64,000 nt of DNA from Mimachlamys varia (Eukaryota > Mollusca > Bivalvia > Pectinida > Pectinidae): assembly GCA_947623455.1 (NCBI GenBank), contig OX392545.1, positions 20,558,001 to 20,622,000 of the forward strand, written 5' to 3'. The translations under genes were made by a program, and so were the position numbers. Below are positions 7,316 to 64,000 of this stretch, one piece after another. Each line of letters begins with the position of its first letter. Position 1 is the first letter of the stretch. The notes beneath the pieces are model-generated. The model saw only the letters and a program-made list of their open reading frames with translations. It ran no database searches and had not been told where the DNA came from.

Positions 7316-7433
7316 GAAGAGTAAATAAACACAAAAAAACGATTGAAATAACCAATATACTTGACGAAGGTTGATTAGAAAACTGAAACTTAATAAGTAT
7401 GCTACTAGCTTCCGTTTAAACGTCTTGGGTAAA

Positions 7434-7885
7434 TGTAGTTCCGGTGTGCTGCTTTAACTACATCCGGTGCGTGCTTCATATACATCCGATGTGCTGCCGT
7501 ATATTCTTCCTGTATGCAGCTTTAAGTACTTCTGATAAGCTGCTGTATTGACTTCCGGTATGCAGCTTTATGTACTTCCTATGTGCTGCTGTATTTACTT
7601 CCGATATGCAGCTTTATGTACTTCCGATGTGCTGCTTTATTTACTTCCGGTATGCAGATTTATGTACTTCCGATGTGCTGCTGTATCTACTTCCGGTATG
7701 CAGATTTATGTACTTCCGATGTGCTGCTGTACTTACTTCCGGTATGCTGCTTGTTGTACTTCCGATGTGCTGCTGTATATACTTCCGGTATGTGCTTTAT
7801 GTACTTTCGGTGTGCTGTTTTATGCACTTCCGATGTGTTGCATATGTACTTCCGGTGTGCTACATATTTACTTGGTATGCTGATT
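7434..7885. repeat. 22-23-bp minisatellite with alternating subunits
   Basis: Alternating units of the types TGCTGCTGTATTTACTTCCG and TGCAGCTTTATGTACTTCCG give a roughly 45-bp higher-order period. Edge units are diverged and central ones regular. The Cys/Tyr/Phe-rich open frames in all plus frames are by-products of the array. Confidence 0.9.
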
Positions 7886-8539
7886 AATGTTCTTCTGTTA
7901 CGCTTCTTTAGTTCCGCTTGCAGTTCTTTACCAGTCAATGTTGTGTAAATCATAGTTAGAAATTATTTTTACTTTTAAGAATTCGTTGTGTGTACATTGA
8001 TTCAAATTATTGATTTCTGTTTCATTATTGCTAGTAAAAAGCAGAACTCTTTTCTAAAGGTGAAACTTTGTGGATTCATTTGTGAATTCTAAAATATATC
8101 GCTTCATAACTTGTCAACGAAGCCCTGATCTTTTATAGTCCGATAAATATTGAAACGAAATAGCTACTACATAAACGTAACTTTGAATGGGAAAAACCTT
8201 AAATGAAAATTTCACGGTGCTTCATAATATATTTCTGTACTTACTTTGTCAATTATTTGAGAAAATGTTGTAGAGCTTTAATCAGAAAAAAGTATTTCTA
8301 TTTGACTTTTGACATGATATCTATTAGCAATAGAAAGTTGGTTTGAATACAGAAATCCATTCTTGAGCACCAGAGCTGTTTCCTGAATACGTGCCCTTTT
8401 ATGAAGTCGGGCTGTGATCCTGGTACAAATCTTGTTGGGTTTCTAAATTGTTTTATAGTTTGAAGTTATTTTTTGTAATATACAACACATTATATTTCAA
8501 TCACACAACCAACAACCGCAAACAAATACTTGATATAGA

Positions 8540-9168: not shown

Positions 9169-9988
9169 TCTGGCAACAAAGGGCGTTGTTTCCAAATATA
9201 AATATCTGGCAACAGAGGGCGTTGTTTCCAAATATGGATCTCTGGGAACAGAGGGCGTTGTTTCCAACTACGGATATCTGGCAACAGCGGACGTTGTTTC
9301 CAAATATGCATGGATCTCTGGCAACAGAGGGCGTTGTTTCCAAATACGGATATCTGGGAACAGAGGCCGTTGTTTCCAAATACGGATATCTGGGAACAGA
9401 GGGCGTTGTTTCCAAATACAGATCTCTGGGAACACAGGGCGTTGTTTCCAAATACGGATATCTGGTAACAGAGGGCGTTGTTTCCAAATACGGAAATCTG
9501 GGAACAGAGGGCGTTGTTTCCAAATACAGATCTCTGGCAACAGAGGGCGTTGTTTCCAAATATGAATCTCTGGCAACAGAGGGCGTTGTTTCCAAATATG
9601 GATCTCTGGGAACAGAGGGCGTTGTTTCCAAATATGGATCTTTGGGAACAGAGGGCGTTGTTTCCAAATATGAATCTCTGGCAACAGATGGCGTTGTTTC
9701 CAAATATGGATCTCTGGGAACAGAGGGCGTTGTTTCCAAATACGGATCTCTGGGAACAGAGGGCGTTGTTTCCAAATATGAATCTCTGGGAACAGAGGGC
9801 GTTGTTTCCAAATATGGATCTCTGGGAACAGAGGGCGTTGTTTCCAAATACGGATATCTGGCAACAGAGGGTGTTGTTTCCAAATACGGATATCTGGGAA
9901 CAGAGGGCGTTGTTTCCAAATACGGATATCTGGCAACAGAGGGCGTTGTTTCCAAATTCGGATCCTTGGCAACAGAGGGCGTTGTGTT
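9169..9988. repeat. 36-bp minisatellite, about 22-23 units
   Basis: Each unit contains AACAGAGGGCGTTGTTTCCA followed by AATAYGGATATCTGG-type sequence. The 36-bp period is divisible by three and the unit mostly lacks stop codons, so long open frames appear on both strands (up to 293 codons). They have no flanking coding context, so I treat them as artefacts of the repeat. Confidence 0.95.
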
Positions 9989-10046: not shown

Positions 10047-11265
10047 TTATCATCACATCTGCTAACTACTAAAGTATGTTCAATTGTTCATAATTGTGTT
10101 GTGTTTTTTCTATTTTAAAGGATAACATTCATGGTCATAAAAAGTAAATAAAAATCATTATACCAATATATACCGACAGTAAATAAATCAATTCCTGCAG
10201 CTTCAAAATCGTGGGAAACAGCGGATTAGAATCAGCAGAGATTAACAAAATGCTTGTTATCCCAAAATGTTCCAATTTTCGCAGCAATTGGGAGTAAAAT
10301 GTGCGTATAACGACAAAAAGGGCTCATACCTAATTAACTAATACCAACAATACGGTAAGAGGCGAAAGAAAAGTAGCTTGGATTTTTCTATTCTGTGCAC
10401 GAGACGATGATAAAGGCAACTTAACGGTTCATTACGAAAGGTCGAGAAAAGTTGCGTTGCTGTTCGGAATCCCTCCGAGAATATTACTTTACAATCCGGT
10501 CGGTTCGCGGAACATCAGACGAAGATTTCAGAAAATTAGTCTCATTGGGATTTGGATAAACCCGACACACAGGCATTTCCCCTTCGTCCTCATTTGTTTC
10601 CCTAATTGGGAAAATATTCACATCAAGCCGTTTTATTTGCTATTACCATGGCTAGTTACTAGTTTATCTTGTCAGAATGCTCGCCGCGAGACCGTCCCCA
10701 GGGGGCGCTGCTCGCACGCCATCCCATAATTAAACATATTCACAAATGACGGAAAACCGTTAGGAAAACAGCCTAATCAATGTGTTCTTTAGTGGGCGCG
10801 TTTATCTAATATTCCTCAATTCAATCAAGAGCTCAGAATTCAATTGTGACTTTTCTTTAGCAAATACAAGCACGAATCTACCCTGGTGAGGTCAAGTGGA
10901 GCTGTAACTAAAAGGAAAAACAACTTCTTAACTGTCCTTCTGTCCGGAAATTTCCGGTAAATCTGTTTAACTTGTGGAGAGAGAAACTTAGTGCAGCTTT
11001 GATATCCTAAATATTATCAGTGTTGCAATAGTTTCACAATTTTAAAACTTGGCTAATGAATATTTGCGTTAATTAATTATTTAAGTGAAATAAAGTTACT
11101 TTCCCTCCGTTTTGTTTTTAATTTTATATACAGCTCGCAAATGGTTGTTATGTGATAAACATGTGTTTCCTTGACAGAAACAAATATTAAACTAGAGGCA
11201 GTCAGAATTGTATTTAGGGCAACCTTATCGTAATGTAACTTAATGTAACACTTGTATAGTATGTA
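10047..11265. other. Flank between the 36-bp array and the hammerhead repeat
   Basis: No gene or strong repeat recognised apart from the candidate regulatory block at 10440-10740. Confidence 0.5.
10440..10740. promoter_or_regulatory. Candidate upstream regulatory block
   Basis: About 300 bp of non-repetitive, less AT-rich sequence about 4.7 kb upstream of the Bsx ATG, with several AATT/ATTA cores near its ends. The 90-codon open frame across it has no recognisable domain and I do not treat it as a gene. Confidence 0.25.
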
Positions 11266-11660
11266 CTGTGCCACTACTCAAATGAGATTAACTGTGGCTA
11301 TGGAGGCTCCAACAAACCTCGGGGACTAAAAAATCCACCAGCAGAGTCTGCCACCCCTTATCATAAAGATCACGTAACACACACATATGCTGCACCTCTT
11401 AAATTTAGTAATAGATACAGTATGCCGAAAAAAAAATGAATTAAACTGCATCATACAGCTGTTTCGTCCTCCTAGGACTCTTCAGTGATGCTAGGGGCCA
11501 AAAGGTAGGAATCCAAAATTTCTAAACTTATGTAGAAGCAGAAGGGTCAGGTGCGTAAAACCCCTTCAATTTATTAATTTAGAAGTAACATTAAACTAGT
11601 TCTGTTTAATTTCAAATCGTGTACTACGAAAATGTGTATATTTAGTACCTATAGAAGGCA
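11266..11660 (-). mobile_element. Hammerhead-ribozyme repeat, copy 1 (retrozyme-like)
   Basis: The ribozyme strand is minus. This copy holds in plus order: a segment around CTCAAATGAGATTAACTGTG and ATCCACCAGCAG, a segment with ACACACACATATGCTGCACC, the hammerhead itself (11448-11491), then GAATCCAAAATTTCTAAAC, GTAAAACCCCTTCAATTTAT and a tail to about 11,660. There is no coding capacity. Similar units lie near 39.7, 40.2, 45.3, 49.4 and 63.9 kb. Confidence 0.8.
11448..11491 (-). ncRNA. Type I hammerhead ribozyme, best-preserved copy
   Basis: Read on the minus strand: GCATCA (stem I), CTGAAGA (fits CUGANGA), GTCCT-AGG-AGGAC (stem II), GAA then ACAGCTGT (GAAA core, stem III), A, and TGATGC (stem I, perfect partner of GCATCA). 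The cleavage triplet is GUA. Stem III is self-complementary and very short, so it would be stable mainly in a two-molecule or tandem arrangement, as known for minimal hammerheads in retroelements. All core bases are present; activity is inferred. Confidence 0.85.
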
Positions 11661-26349: not shown

Positions 26350-27060
26350 AAAAACGTATTTAGGCCCCAAACAGTAATAAACCACTAATACTGTATAATA
26401 GTTAAAAGAAATAGGCGCCAGCACTGTAATAAACTACTGATATTGTATAGTTAAAATAAACAGGCGCCAGTACTGTATTAAACCACTGATATTGTATAGT
26501 TAAAATAAACAGGCACCAGTACTGTATTAAACCACTGATATTGTATAGTTAAAATAAACAGGCGCCAGTACTGTATTAAAACACTGTTATTATATAGTTT
26601 AAATAAATAGGCTCCAGTACTGTAATTAACAACTAGTATTGTATAGATAAAATAAACAGACGCCAGTACTGTATTAAACCACTGATATTGTAAAGTTAAA
26701 TAGGCGCCAATACTGTAATTAACCACTAATATTGTATAATTAAACATGCAGGCACCAGTACTGTATTAAACCACTAATATTGTATAGTTAATTAGGCGCC
26801 AGCATTGTAATAAACCACTGATATTGTACAGTGAAACTAAGCAGGCGCCAGTTGTAACACACTAATATTGTATAGTTAAATATGCGCCAGTACTGTATTA
26901 AATCACTTATATTGTATAGTTAAAATAAACAGGCTCCAATACTGTAATAAACCACTAATATTATATCATTACATATTTAGGTACAAATACAGCATTTAAC
27001 CACTCACATTGTATATTTAACAATATTTATAGGCGCCAATACTGAAATGCACCACTTAAT
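26350..27060. repeat. 49-bp tandem repeat (intron 1)
   Basis: About 14 units with CAGGCGCCAGTACTGTATTA and CCACTGATATTGTATAGTT. CAGGCRCCAG starts at 26461, 26510 and 26559, a 49-bp step. Outer units are shorter and diverged. Confidence 0.9.
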
Positions 27061-33841: not shown

Positions 33842-34776
33842 TGTATTAACATCTGGTAAAGTAACATCCATACTAGTAAATACATTCGGTAAACTTTATA
33901 TCTATACCAGTAATGATATTTGGTAAACTGTATATCCATACCAGTAATGACATTTGGTAAACTGTATATCCATACCAGTAATTACATTCGGTAAACTTTT
34001 TATCCATACCAGTAATGACATTCGGTAAACTGTATATCCATACCAGTAATTACATTCGGTAAACTTTATATCCATACCAGTAATTACATTCGGTAAACTT
34101 TATATCCATACCAGTAATTACATTCGGTAAACTTTATATCCATACCAGTAATTACATTCGGTAAACTTTATATCCATACCAGTAATTACATTCGGTAAAC
34201 TTTATATCCATACCAGTAATTACATTCGGTAAACTTTTTATCCATACCAGTAATTACATTCGGTAAACTTTTTACCCATACCAGTAATTACATTCGGTAA
34301 ACTTTATATCCATACCAGTAATTACATTCGGTAAACTTTATATCCATACCAGTAATTACATTCGGTAAACTTTATATCCATACCAGTAATTACATTCGGT
34401 AAACTTTTTATCCATACCAGTAATTACATTCGGTAAACTTTATATCCATACCAGTAATTACATTCGGTAAACTTTATATCCATACCAGTAATTACATTCG
34501 GTAAACTTTTTATCCATACCAGTAATTACATTCGGTAAACTTTTTATCCATACCAGTAATTACATTCGGTAAACTTTTTATCCATACCAGTAATTACATT
34601 CGGTAAACTTTTTATCCATACCAGTAATTACATACGGTAAACTTTTTATCCATACCAGTAATTACATACGGTAAACTTTTTATCCATACCAGTAATTACA
34701 TACGGTAAACTTTTTATCCATACCAGTAATTACATTCGGTAAACTTTATATCCATACCAGTAATTACATTCGGTAT
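33842..34776. repeat. 34-bp satellite with TAATTA in most units, about 27 units
   Basis: The unit is CCAGTAATTACATTCGGTAA plus ACTTTATATCCATA. The first few units read TAATGA instead of TAATTA; more than 20 later units carry TAATTAC. Variants TTTATATCC/TTTTTATCC and CATTCGG/CATACGG occur in runs, indicating local homogenisation. There are no unique spacers. Confidence 0.95.
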
Positions 34777-39659: not shown

Positions 39660-39850
39660 GCCACATACATCTATCGGCTTTTACGCATCTGACCCTTCTG
39701 CTTCTACGTTAGAGTTCGATTCCACTTTATCTACTTATCTAACATCACTGACGAGTCCTTGAAGGACGAAACAGCTGTATGCTGCAGTTTAATTCATTTT
39801 TTTCGGCATACTGTATCTAGTTGTCAATTTTAAAAGGTGTAACACAAGTG
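39660..39850 (+). mobile_element. Hammerhead-ribozyme repeat, copy 2
   Basis: Same family as 11,266 but plus-oriented: GCATCTGACCCTTCTGCTTC, the hammerhead (39742-39785), AGTTTAATTCATTTTTTTCG, GCATACTGTATCTAG, then a diverged end near TAACACAAGTGTGTT. Confidence 0.8.
39742..39785 (+). ncRNA. Type I hammerhead ribozyme, weakened stem I
   Basis: CTGACGA, stem II GTCCT-TGA-AGGAC, GAAA and ACAGCTGT with a GUA cleavage triplet are intact. Stem I (ACATCA with TGCTGC) has two mismatches, so folding is less certain than in the 11.4-kb copy. Length is 44 nt, as in the other good copies. Confidence 0.78.
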
Positions 39851-41344
39851 TGTTACATCATCTGTCAAGACAACGGAAATATTGTGTAAGTGGAGTGAGA
39901 ATGAAAAGTACATGTATATCAATTGTTTGAGGTTTAAGATCTAAGCAATGTTTTATACGACTGGTTCAATGCACATTATATACTTGTATCTGACCACGTA
40001 CAAATTTTTTGTTCCAGTATGTAGATTTTCGTAATAAAAGATCGTTAAATGAACATCAGAAAGCGTCATGAAGAAGCATGCGGGATGAAGGTTTTTCGTG
40101 GCAGCAAAAGTACTTAAAGGGTGATACATAGACGGGTATACTAAAGCATTGGTCAAAGGACGCACAGAAGAAGAACGCTTTCATCATTTAGGAAATGATG
40201 CAGAAAAACCAAATGCTTATTTAAACTGCACCATGCCGCTGTTTGTCCTTGTAGGACTGTAAAATTGATAAGCTGTAATGCTTAAGATTAATAAAAGAAT
40301 TGAATTGACTCGAAAGTGATGCTAAGCAAGGTCGCCTAAAATGTGAAGCCTATGATAAGATAAATATGATACATATTTTAGGTTTATCTGATGGTATCAT
40401 AATTTTAGATATTATTTGTATTTAAATATGTCAAAATGAGGTGTGACCTTTACATAAAAGAGCGGAACTTACGTCATATACCGATGCGTGAATTGTGTGT
40501 GTGCTTTTATCGTGTACAGAATGTAAACATCTTTTGTACCTTTAATGGCGGTCACCTGTCCATGTCTTCACACGGAGACCCGACTGTACCACACATCAAA
40601 GTGCTAATTGTATTTATATGTTGACGTCTGACTTCGGCAGTCAAACACACAAAGTAACGCCACGCTGTGACAATAAAAGCGAACCTTTATTAAACAGTTT
40701 AAAAACCAACAGAAACATTTCTGTGTTTGCGAATTAGAAGCTTTATTTAATTATTGATAGAGACACATTCACAAACATACTTAGGACAATGATTACATTA
40801 ATGAAGTTGACAAACACGTTTTAAATGTCGCTCACTTATACCATTTAACATGGAAATCCTTCAGCACACTTAGCATAACGAATGTAAAGGAGGTGTAATT
40901 GCCTGACCAGGAGAGCGCACCTGTCCCTGGGACTTGTTATAGAAACAGGAGTGGCGGTGTATTGATCGAGAGCCGAAGGACCAACCAGCTACTGGCTGAC
41001 GGGCAGTGGTATTGTAATGTTATATGCAAATGACACACGGTTTCCTACCATCTCTCTGAAATGAGCTTCGACGAGTTCCAATGCTTCTGTAGGGACGCGA
41101 AACAACACTCGACAATAACTATCTAAATGTCAATGAAGAAAACAAAACTTTGAAAATAGTAAAATATTGCATAAATTTTAACACAACCTTGTATTATCCG
41201 TCTTATTACATCGCCTCTGCAGTATAGACTTTTAATGCAAATGCGATTAAGAGAGTGGCATAAATATATATTACGTTGAGAATATTGCTTCAGTTCTCAC
41301 TTTGAGGTCATGACAATTACTTATTATTTATTCTCTTATTCTTT
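39851..41344. other. Unassigned stretch
   Basis: Apart from the decayed hammerhead fragment I see no gene or array. Confidence 0.45.
40205..40275 (-). mobile_element. Decayed hammerhead repeat fragment, copy 3
   Basis: AAACTGCACCATGCCGCTGT, then TTGTCCTTGTAGGACTGTAA is recognisable as the inverse of a hammerhead core, but the CUGANGA side is lost. Confidence 0.6.
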
Positions 41345-45180: not shown

Positions 45181-45239
45181 TTGCTTAAATGTTTGACCAG
45201 ATTTAATAAAAACAAAATATATACACGTTATGTTATTAA

Positions 45240-45660
45240 AGATGACTTAACACACACATGTGCTGCACCTTTTAAAGATGACGTAACACACACATATGCT
45301 GCACCTCTTAAATTTAATAGATACAGTATGACGATGATAATGAAATAAACTGCACCACACAGCTGTTTCGTCCTACTAGGACTCTTCAGTAATGCAAGGG
45401 ACCAAAAGGCTGGAATCCAAAATTTCTAAACTAATGTAGAAGCAGAAGAGTCAGGTACGTAAAACCCCTTTAATTTATGAATTGAGGAGAAAAAAATAAA
45501 CTAGTTCTGTATTATTTCACAAATCGTGTACTTGTGTGTATATTATGTATCATGCCACCACTCAAATGAGATTAACTGTGTGTAGGGAGGCCACGGGGAC
45601 TGAAGAATCCACCAGCAGATTTATTCAATGAGAAGGGGGTATTTTCATTTTTGATATTAG
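45240..45660 (-). mobile_element. Hammerhead-ribozyme repeat, copy 4 (permuted)
   Basis: In plus order: ACACACACATATGCTGCACC (itself locally duplicated), the hammerhead (45352-45395), AATCCAAAATTTCTAAAC, GTAAAACCCCTTTAATTTAT, ACTAGTTCTGTATTATTTC. After these come CTCAAATGAGATTAACTGTG and ATCCACCAGCAG, which precede the hammerhead in the 11-kb copy. The order is thus a circular permutation of copy 1. Confidence 0.8.
45352..45395 (-). ncRNA. Type I hammerhead ribozyme with altered cleavage site
   Basis: Minus strand: GCATTA (stem I), CTGAAGA, GTCCT-AGT-AGGAC, GAAA, ACAGCTGT, then G and TGGTGC (stem I, paired with wobbles). The core is intact but the cleavage triplet is GUG, which violates the NUH rule, so self-cleavage is probably lost. 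Confidence 0.78.
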
Positions 45661-49339: not shown

Positions 49340-49414
49340 TTATTCATGACGTAACACACACACACATTTTAAATGTAGTAATCTATACAGTATGCCGAAA
49401 AAATGAATTAAACT

Positions 49415-49458
49415 GCACCTTACAGCTGTTTCGTCCTCCTAGGACCCTTCAGTGATGC
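49415..49458 (-). ncRNA. Type I hammerhead ribozyme with core mutation
   Basis: Minus strand: GCATCA, CTGAAGG (last core A changed to G), GTCCT-AGG-AGGAC, GAAA, ACAGCTGT, A, AGGTGC. Stem II, stem III and the GUA triplet are kept; the core change should reduce or abolish cleavage. Confidence 0.75.
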
Positions 49459-49517
49459 TAGGGGCCGAAAGGTGGGAATCCACATTTTCTAAACTATTGT
49501 GGAAGCAGAGGGGTCAG

Positions 49518-49753
49518 GGCCCAGTTGTTCAAAGGATGATTAGCTAAATCACTATTTAACGACATTTTTCAAACTTTAATCATTCTGTCAATGTACAAGG
49601 TAAAAGCTTCAAATTTTGTATGTAAATTGTCACTATTAGATATTTGATATTAGTAACGTTGTAACACAGTATATTGCTTTATGTCAAAATTACAGGATAA
49701 TTAATATTTACACTAATCACTGATTAAACTAATCACCTTTTGAACAACCGGGC
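49518..49753. mobile_element. MITE nested in a hammerhead repeat, with target duplication
   Basis: Begins GGCCCAGTTGTTCAAAGG and ends with the inverse of GGCCCGGTTGTTCAAAAGG. CAG at 49515-49517 and 49754-49756 is a 3-bp target-site duplication, and removing the insert restores the uninterrupted sequence seen in copies at 11.5 and 45.4 kb. Inner TGATTAG words are also inverted. A three-base duplication fits Harbinger-like elements, but the TWA preference is absent, so the superfamily is open. Confidence 0.82.
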
Positions 49754-50142
49754 CCAGGTGCGTAAAACCCCGTCAATTTAGGAATTTAGAAGTAAAATGG
49801 AGATTTCCGATGTTTTATGTGATAAGGTCTTTTCCCCATCTTATAAAGCTGTTGTATTTTGTATTCTGAATCTTGCTTTGTTGTAGACGCCTATTTATAC
49901 TAATCATCTTGAGTATGACAATGTACACATATATAGCATGAAGAGTACATTAGACTACACTAGTACATACGTCTGGTCTACAGAACTGCTGCGTCATCAT
50001 GACCTACTCTGTGATCGGTTAGTACGAAAAGGTCGGTATCGTATCATTCTCTCATGAGAACTACCGCATTACAGGTTATTTATGCCACTCGCGAATTTCG
50101 CCGTTTGCTACTTAGAACGGAGTATCTAATAAAATAAATAAA

Positions 50143-62927: not shown

Positions 62928-63079
62928 ACTCTTTCATGACCAGGGATGTAAGATAGGGATCTTCCACCCGAGGGGTTTTCAAATTTGTTAAAACCCGAGG
63001 CTATGCAGAGGGTTTTGCCAAATTTGAAAACCCCGAGGGTGCAATTTCCCTATCTTAAACATTTGGTCATGAAAGAGTC
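62928..63079. mobile_element. Foldback (MITE-like) element, 152 bp
   Basis: ACTCTTTCATGACCA at the left and its inverse at the right; arms also pair through AAGATAGGGA, CCCGAGGGGTTTTC and AAACCC. Nearly the whole element folds. Confidence 0.78.
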
Positions 63080-63849: not shown

Positions 63850-64000
63850 CCAAATGTAATCAATTTTTAGGAGGAGAAAACATCCGCATGATGCAGTTTA
63901 ATTTAATTTTTTTCTGTATACTGTATACATTGTATATTACTTAATTGAAAAAGGTGCAGCATACAGCATGTGTGTGTTACGGCATATTCGGACATTTTCG
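63850..64000 (+). mobile_element. Hammerhead-ribozyme repeat, copy 6 (partial, runs off the window)
   Basis: TAGGAGGAGAAAACATCCGC aligns with the stem II to GAAA part of the ribozyme, followed by ATGATGCAGTTTAATTTAAT, CTGTATACTGTAT and AGGTGCAGCATACAGCATGT. The CUGANGA side has decayed. The element continues beyond the last base. Confidence 0.6.

What the first reader, a model, noticed from the sequence alone, without database searches (positions are those of the whole stretch)
11448..11491. Dispersed repeats encode a complete type I hammerhead ribozyme
The 44-nt minus-strand segment has every element of a hammerhead in order: stem I strand GCATCA, CUGAAGA, stem II with a triloop, GAAA, a self-complementary stem III (ACAGCUGU), GUA, and the stem I partner UGAUGC. 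The same layout, also 44 nt long, recurs at 39742-39785, 45352-45395 and 49415-49458. Small hammerhead-bearing repeats (retrozymes) and hammerheads in Penelope-like elements are known in animals; this unit near Bsx looks like such a family.
Basis: partly seen in the sequence, partly recalled or inferred. Interest (0 to 1): 0.88.

Follow-up and report, generated by a model that had tools for sequence, protein, structure and literature searches.

The report
Self-cutting RNA element in scallop genome
A repeat family of about 380 letters, spread through a scallop genome, carries a complete hammerhead ribozyme, an RNA predicted to cut itself, and most sampled copies end about 86 letters past the predicted cut, much as in the Penelope-like elements that likely move it.

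Summary
In detail: four 44-nt segments are as stated, 0 expected by chance. Only 11448-11491 is intact; the other three have stem, core or cleavage-triplet defects. The ribozyme sits in a noncoding ~380-nt unit found circularly permuted and sometimes longer than one unit: a non-LTR retrozyme, as published for mussel (350-390 bp). Its core pattern occurs 3,898 times, 0 in the reversed control. New here: most sampled copies share one 3' end, median 86.5 nt past the predicted cut (26 of 30 and 29 of 39 within 12 nt of it), with scattered 5' ends and no pile-up at the cut. Two Penelope-like (PLE) families in this genome carry hammerhead-like motifs and end 82-85 and 65-80 nt past theirs (near-identical copies); published Anolis PLE numbers give 85-92. 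I infer PLE-type internal priming on circular or multimeric RNA. A sister family carries 7-23 hammerheads head to tail at 45 nt. Cleavage, circles and the helper are untested.

The parts
11253..11649 (-). Retrozyme copy, one full turn of the ~380-nt unit plus about 15 nt (unit positions 102 to 116)
   Evidence: 90% identity to a real tandem unit (L034)
11448..11491 (-). Type I hammerhead: stem I GCAUCA/UGAUGC, core CUGAAGA, stem II GUCCU/AGGAC with triloop, GAAA, palindromic stem III ACAGCUGU, GUA; predicted cut between 11454 and 11453
   Evidence: RF00163 32.4 bits, E 0.00036
39664..39870 (+). 5'-truncated copy (unit 176 to 8), ending at the common 3' end
   Evidence: 78% identity
39742..39785 (+). 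Hammerhead with 2 of 6 stem I pairs broken
   Evidence: no RF00163 match up to E 10
40188..40258 (-). Remnant of the hammerhead and downstream part (unit 272-343)
   Evidence: 74% identity
45272..45622 (-). Full-turn copy (unit 21 to 5) ending at the common 3' end
   Evidence: 82% identity
45352..45395 (-). Hammerhead with GUG in place of NUH; predicted not to cut
   Evidence: RF00163 31.9 bits
45224..45273 (-). Second short tail (unit 348 to 17) right behind the 3' end of the 45272-45622 copy, compared with the optional tail of PLEs
49346..49518 (-). 5'-truncated copy (unit 200 to 379), ending at the common 3' end
   Evidence: 85% identity
49415..49458 (-). Hammerhead with a changed core base (CUGAAGG) and one stem I mismatch; predicted not to cut
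49729..49798 (-). Fragment of the unit (160-229)
   Evidence: 76% identity
63868..63988 (+). Truncated copy (unit 277 to 2) lacking the 5' part of the hammerhead, ending at the common 3' end
   Evidence: 75% identity

Best explanation
The 44-nt motif is the type I hammerhead of a noncoding retrozyme of about 380 nt, whose RNA would cut itself and is likely copied back into the genome by a Penelope-like reverse transcriptase that starts about 86 nt past the cut. Shown: a repeat unit that closes on itself, is found circularly permuted and sometimes exceeds one unit; one preferred 3' end in most sampled copies; 5' ends spread all round the unit. Predicted, not tested: the multimeric transcript is cut at each GUA, and the monomers are joined into circles by a host ligase (as published for mussel). 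Inferred: a PLE protein opens the target DNA and primes inside the RNA near unit position 3, the cDNA runs back through an uncut or resealed hammerhead site, stops at a variable point, and so leaves a copy with a fixed 3' end and a variable 5' end, or one or two turns of the circle. The 45-nt all-hammerhead arrays of the sister family are inferred to come from slippage or repeated turns on the ribozyme module.
For: Core pattern 3,898 times in the genome, 0 for the reversed pattern. HHR-to-HHR spacings 340, 340, 350, 374, 380, 380 in six multi-unit loci. Two window copies are full turns of one circle opened at different points (11253-11649 and 45272-45622). Sample B (first 30 chr1 matches of a downstream pattern, not selected on the ribozyme): 26 of 30 end within 12 nt of one point. 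Sample A (40 chr1 loci selected on the ribozyme, 39 mapped): 29 of 39. The median offset from the predicted cut is 86.5 nt in both among ends at 74-98 nt (28 of 30, 30 of 39). Seven loci are in both samples. Longer than one unit: 5 of 30 and 10 of 39. Only 1 of 30 5' ends in B lies within 5 nt of the cut. 40 of 42 listed matches to a junction probe run straight into the next unit (ranked by score). In the same genome two RT + GIY-YIG families have hammerhead-like motifs behind their ORFs: five near-identical L104-type copies end 82-85 nt past the cut, five L105-type copies 65-80, commonest 71. Anolis PLE PAc: cut 26 nt and RT start 111-118 nt into the ORF, i.e. 85-92 apart (PMC11167929, passages; the subtraction is mine).
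Against: No shared tail sequence between the window retrozyme and either PLE was found: L103, L104 and L105 gave no convincing match. An offset of 65-95 nt would come up by chance for one arbitrary 3' end in about 8% of cases. Rfam did not call the L104/L105 motifs (0 matches up to E 1); they were read by eye. Stem covariation within the retrozyme family does not exceed shuffles. The isolated 44-mer's minimum-energy fold is not the catalytic one (-13.6 against -8.7 kcal/mol). Target-site duplications are weak: 3 of 60 copies share 8 nt or more. In PAc, hammerhead mutants still inserted in vitro, so cleavage may not be needed for insertion. Nine of 39 ends in A lie more than 18 nt from the common point. 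Uncut tandem transcripts would explain multi-unit copies without circles. No RNA data.
Confidence: 0.7

Rival explanations
1. The repeats are remnants of the pseudo-LTR of an autonomous Penelope-like element whose coding part is lost or elsewhere.
For: PLEs carry hammerheads in their repeats (PMC7761336, passages). PLE families in this genome have a hammerhead-like motif and a similar 3' end. The 1.41-kb L107 tandem unit shows a shortened PLE with this module.
Against: The unit closes on itself at ~380 nt in many places with no RT frame: longest open stretch 96 aa in a doubled unit. No PLE with the retrozyme tail was seen, though only three PLE loci were read.
Confidence: 0.15
2. It is a SINE-like element moved by a LINE, and the hammerhead merely trims the RNA.
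For: Fixed 3' end with variable 5' truncation is also LINE/SINE behaviour.
Against: Full-turn and more-than-one-turn copies, an optional second tail, no poly(A) or microsatellite tail in the flanks shown, and an offset from the hammerhead close to that of PLEs.
Confidence: 0.1
3. It is ordinary DNA satellite spread by recombination, with a hammerhead that no longer matters.
For: Most copies are damaged; stem covariation within the family is absent; the 45-nt arrays could grow by unequal exchange or slippage.
Against: Thousands of dispersed copies with one shared 3' end at unrelated sites point to RNA-templated insertion. The hammerhead is somewhat better conserved (0.934 majority agreement) than the rest (0.899 and 0.925). 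Element families with different ribozyme sequences keep the layout.
Confidence: 0.04
4. Chance resemblance to a hammerhead.
For: No window match reaches the Rfam gathering score.
Against: 0 in 100 shuffles, 0 in the reversed-pattern control, 35 listed genomic matches over the gathering score.
Confidence: 0.01

Closest known systems
Metazoan non-LTR retrozymes, especially of the mussel Mytilus galloprovincialis (Cervera & de la Pena 2020, PMC7229834)
   Same: Type I hammerhead; noncoding unit (mussel 350-390 bp, here ~340-380); low GC; thousands of copies (mussel ~5000); tandem or multi-unit copies
   Different: Different host; RNA circles and self-cleavage are shown there but not here; most copies seen here are dispersed and 5'-truncated with one fixed 3' end, a feature I did not see in the parts of that paper that I read
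Penelope-like elements with minimal hammerheads (PMC11167929, PMC7761336; Cervera & de la Pena 2014 and Lunse et al. 2017 seen only as references)
   Same: Minimal hammerhead with a short palindromic stem III; 3' end a set distance past the cut; tandem or partial-tandem copies; tandem minimal hammerheads are reported in PLEs, e.g. of the axolotl (PMC7229834, passages)
   Different: The window element has no RT or GIY-YIG frame and closes on itself at ~380 nt
Newt and axolotl satellite hammerheads (PMC6155905, PMC7229834, passages)
   Same: Weak stem III made of a palindrome; two neighbouring units can pair stem III, as in dimeric hammerheads
   Different: Repeats of ~330-350 bp there; the sister family here has 45-nt spacing, i.e. 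essentially ribozyme only
Plant LTR retrozymes (PMC4918200, search listing; PMC7229834, passages)
   Same: Noncoding, circular RNA intermediate proposed
   Different: Type III hammerheads in LTRs, 600-800 nt; here type I, and no LTR was looked for beyond the unit itself

Membership tests
Metazoan non-LTR retrozyme | Type I hammerhead motif | tested here: met
   RF00163 E 0.00036 (below gathering in the window; 35 of 40 listed genomic matches above it)
Metazoan non-LTR retrozyme | Unit of about 150-450 bp between hammerheads, in dimers or multimers | tested here: met
   spacings 340, 340, 350, 374, 380, 380; 40 of 42 listed junction-probe matches cross into the next unit; window copies themselves are single
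Metazoan non-LTR retrozyme | Noncoding and low GC (<45%) | tested here: met
   GC 38.4% (L034 unit) and 37.8% (window copy); longest open stretch 96 and 59 aa
Metazoan non-LTR retrozyme | No LTR, primer binding site or polypurine tract | not tested
   No dedicated search was run
Metazoan non-LTR retrozyme | Self-cleavage in vitro | not testable with these tools
   -
Metazoan non-LTR retrozyme | Linear and circular RNAs in tissue | not testable with these tools
   -
Penelope-like element | RT (usually with GIY-YIG) reading frame | tested here: not met
   No long frame in the unit. Filed as working like a PLE in its insertion, not as a PLE.
Penelope-like element | 3' end fixed by internal RT initiation downstream of the hammerhead | tested here: met
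   26 of 30 and 29 of 39 copies, median 86.5 nt; that internal RT initiation causes it is inference
Rfam RF00163 Hammerhead_1 | Score at or above gathering (34 bits) | tested here: not met
   window copies 32.4 and 31.9 bits; other genomic copies reach 45 bits

The most novel reading that the evidence does not exclude
Retrozymes are parasites of Penelope-like elements, and the hammerhead sets the register: in three element families of one scallop, and in the Anolis PLE, reverse transcription starts about 70-90 nt downstream of the hammerhead cut, on RNA whose cut site is whole, so the ribozyme makes and reseals the circular template that the PLE enzyme then reads for one or more turns. In the sister family this has been reduced to a 45-nt, ribozyme-only unit that would release the smallest known self-processing element RNA.
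Probability: 0.4. Interest if true: 0.75.

Novelty: new member of a known kind. Interest (0 to 1): 0.5.

Why it matters
Which enzyme moves animal retrozymes is unsettled in the papers I saw: PMC7761336 names PLEs and Terminons as likely candidates, and PMC7229834 proposes an RT primed on circular RNA. Insertion ends in a chromosome-level genome give a direct test. They show one preferred start point, a place relative to the hammerhead close to that measured for a PLE in vitro, and read-through of the cut site. If it holds in other animals, the helper question becomes testable by counting ends, and hammerhead position becomes a landmark for finding PLE parasites. The 45-nt arrays offer natural chains of neighbouring hammerheads for testing dimer cleavage.

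Tried and rejected
Chance and DNA-only satellite were set aside for the reasons under rivals. Covariation within the family was tried as evidence of function and failed: paired percentages do not differ from shuffles, so it is not used. Target-site duplications were sought: mean longest shared string 5.22 nt against 4.78 (sd 0.13) for shuffled flank pairs, 60 copies, only 3 with 8 nt or more; a weak excess, not used. The subtelomeric PLE (L103) was tested as helper and shows no hammerhead by pattern or Rfam. One search was meant to sample 3' ends but ranks by score and so picked junction-crossing copies; it is used only for those. PMC4209133 and PMC5785218 are not held.

Row dropped before a count: L029 from sample A (its match did not cover the locus centre). 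L076 was left out of the conservation count, and seven duplicate loci out of the flank test. Copies whose 3' end lay more than 12 nt from the common point, or too near a locus end, were also left out. Sample A is the first 40 chr1 loci, drawn from a list that itself showed only the first ~100 of 3,898 matches; sample B is the first 30 of 1,865 matches. Both are chr1 only.

Full report
OBSERVATION. A pattern for their shared core gives 4 exact matches in the window and 0 in 100 dinucleotide-preserving shuffles. Rfam scores 11448 at 32.4 bits (E 0.00036) and 45352 at 31.9 bits, below the 34-bit gathering score; a gathering-level scan lists nothing. Read against the hammerhead rules (recalled: CUGANGA, GAAA, NUH), only 11448 is unbroken. 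39742 has two of six stem I pairs broken, 45352 has GUG at the cleavage triplet, and 49415 has CUGAAGG and an A-A mismatch (sequences and pairs).

WHERE IT IS. The window is contig C19 of a 975.3-Mb assembly. The contig lengths that I saw fit the chromosome table of Mimachlamys varia xbMimVari1 (PMC11252643, passages; contig lengths). That paper gives 82 scaffolds and 975.4 Mb, against 71 contigs and 975.30 Mb here.

THE UNIT. The ribozyme lies in a unit that closes on itself. Hammerheads follow each other at 340, 340, 350, 374, 380 and 380 nt in six multi-unit loci. Taking one real tandem unit (L034, 380 nt) as a ruler, the window copies are 11253-11649 (a full turn, unit 102 to 116), 39664-39870 (176 to 8), 45272-45622 (21 to 5, a full turn), 49346-49518 (200 to 379) and 63868-63988 (277 to 2), plus three fragments. 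Two full turns opened at different points are what copies of a circular or tandem template look like. The unit has no long reading frame and 38% GC. The core pattern occurs 3,898 times in the genome, 0 times reversed. This count includes the 45-nt arrays.

THE FIXED 3' END. In sample B (first 30 chr1 matches to a pattern downstream of the ribozyme, so not selected on it) 26 of 30 copies end within 12 nt of the same unit position. In sample A (40 ribozyme-selected chr1 loci, 39 mapped, seven loci shared with B) the figure is 29 of 39. Counted from the predicted cut after GUA (unit 297), 28 of 30 and 30 of 39 ends fall at 74-98 nt, median 86.5 in both. Other ends in A lie at 2, 13, 15, 22, 32, 38, 51, 52 and 261 nt, in B at 195 and 207. 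The 5' ends are spread over the unit, and only 1 of 30 in B lies within 5 nt of the cut. Lengths exceed one unit in 5 of 30 and 10 of 39. In the window 4 of the 5 main copies end at the common point; the intact 11448 copy does not. Of 42 listed matches to a probe across the end point, 40 run on into the next unit, so multi-unit copies are common, though that list is ranked by score.

PENELOPE-LIKE ELEMENTS IN THE SAME GENOME. A GIY-YIG scan listed 56 places (150 of 241 candidates scored). Three were read. L103 is a subtelomeric tandem PLE with no hammerhead found. L104 and L105 have RT + GIY-YIG frames and a second zinc-finger-like frame, and behind these a hammerhead-like motif that I read by eye. 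L104 has stem I UGCC/GGCA, palindrome ACCGGU and GUC. L105 has stem I AUUGUC/GACGAU, palindrome ACAUGU and GUA, with an extra C before stem II. Rfam reports neither up to E 1. The L105 motif is supported by a relative, the noncoding 1181-bp tandem unit L106, whose stem I is GUCGUC/GACGAC: one pair changed on both sides, one on one side. Matches to the 3' part of L104 end at one place: five near-identical copies end 82-85 nt past the cut, and 26 of 35 non-self matches end 75-93 nt past it. Five near-identical L105 copies end 65-80 nt past theirs, commonest 71, and 42 of 43 non-self matches end 62-82 nt past it; several of these are units of tandem arrays, so they are not all independent. For the Anolis PLE PAc the paper puts the hammerhead cut 26 nt and the RT start 111-118 nt into the ORF, which makes 85-92 nt (PMC11167929, passages). 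The same paper reports an optional 30-40 bp tail; the window copy at 45272 has a second tail of about 50 aligned nt at 45224-45273.

MECHANISM. Shown here: the hammerhead sequence, the self-closing unit, the preferred 3' end, the spread 5' ends, and that inserts carry the cut site whole. Predicted: self-cleavage of 11448-like RNA. Inferred: circles, a PLE enzyme as helper, priming near unit 3. Read-through of the cut site means that the template was either circularised or never cut; these data cannot choose. In PAc, hammerhead mutants still inserted and no reads began or ended at the cut (PMC11167929, passages), which warns against making cleavage essential. The offset by itself is modest evidence (about 8% by chance for one element); the weight comes from its meeting with full-turn copies, a second tail and PLE-like partial tandems.

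THE 45-NT ARRAYS. A sister family with its own flanks has runs of hammerheads at 45-nt spacing, occasionally 44 or 46: nine loci held, 7 to 23 units by array length; a strict junction pattern counts 207 junctions genome-wide. The four longest right-flank similarities among array pairs reach 81-83 nt, i.e. 86-88 nt past the last predicted cut; the other pairs are shorter. One pair of neighbouring units folded by minimum energy gives the 8-bp inter-unit stem III and both stem IIs of a dimeric hammerhead, but with stem I shifted two bases into the core. Tandem minimal hammerheads are reported in PLEs (PMC7229834, PMC7761336, passages), so I do not claim the idea as new. In my literature searches (open-licence PMC papers only) I saw no report of the fixed retrozyme 3' end or of a scallop retrozyme in the listings and passages shown.

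RESULTS AGAINST. Stem covariation within the family equals shuffles. The 44-mer's minimum-energy fold is not the catalytic one. Conservation of the ribozyme over the rest of the unit is slight: 0.934 against 0.899 and 0.925, 29 copies. Target-site duplications are weak. No PLE with the retrozyme's tail was found, with only three PLE loci read.

VERDICT. A real hammerhead, one intact copy in this window, in a scallop retrozyme: a new member of a known kind, with an insertion signature that points to PLE-type priming.

Noticed in passing
L103 (chr17:47900-53150) and one search places: Subtelomeric tandem Penelope-like elements: 741-aa RT + GIY-YIG frames near ends of several chromosomes, on chr17 in 4,972-bp head-to-tail units with two further frames; no hammerhead found.
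   Followed up: partly
L106 (chr7:47449700-47451150): Noncoding 1,181-bp tandem units that share about 107 nt of hammerhead and tail (83%) with the autonomous PLE L105; look like another hammerhead-bearing parasite of a PLE.
   Followed up: partly
L107 (chr13:4027200-4028700): 1.41-kb tandem units with a 323-aa RT-like frame and the L104-type hammerhead and tail (91%).
   Followed up: partly
chr3:14920200-14923200 (L069) and eight other loci held: Arrays of hammerheads at 45-nt spacing, 7 to 23 units long.
   Followed up: partly
L035 (chr1:4617850-4620250): A copy whose 3' end lies 2 nt past the predicted ribozyme cut; may be a chance end or a copy of cut RNA.
   Followed up: no
window 62962-63044: Hairpin with a sub-threshold mir-85 match (35.1 bits, cut-off 68, E 0.004), probably an inverted repeat.
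   Followed up: no
window 7433-7895, 9169-9985, 26374-26966, 33866-34775: Several long minisatellites (46-, 36-, 49- and 34-bp units).
   Followed up: no
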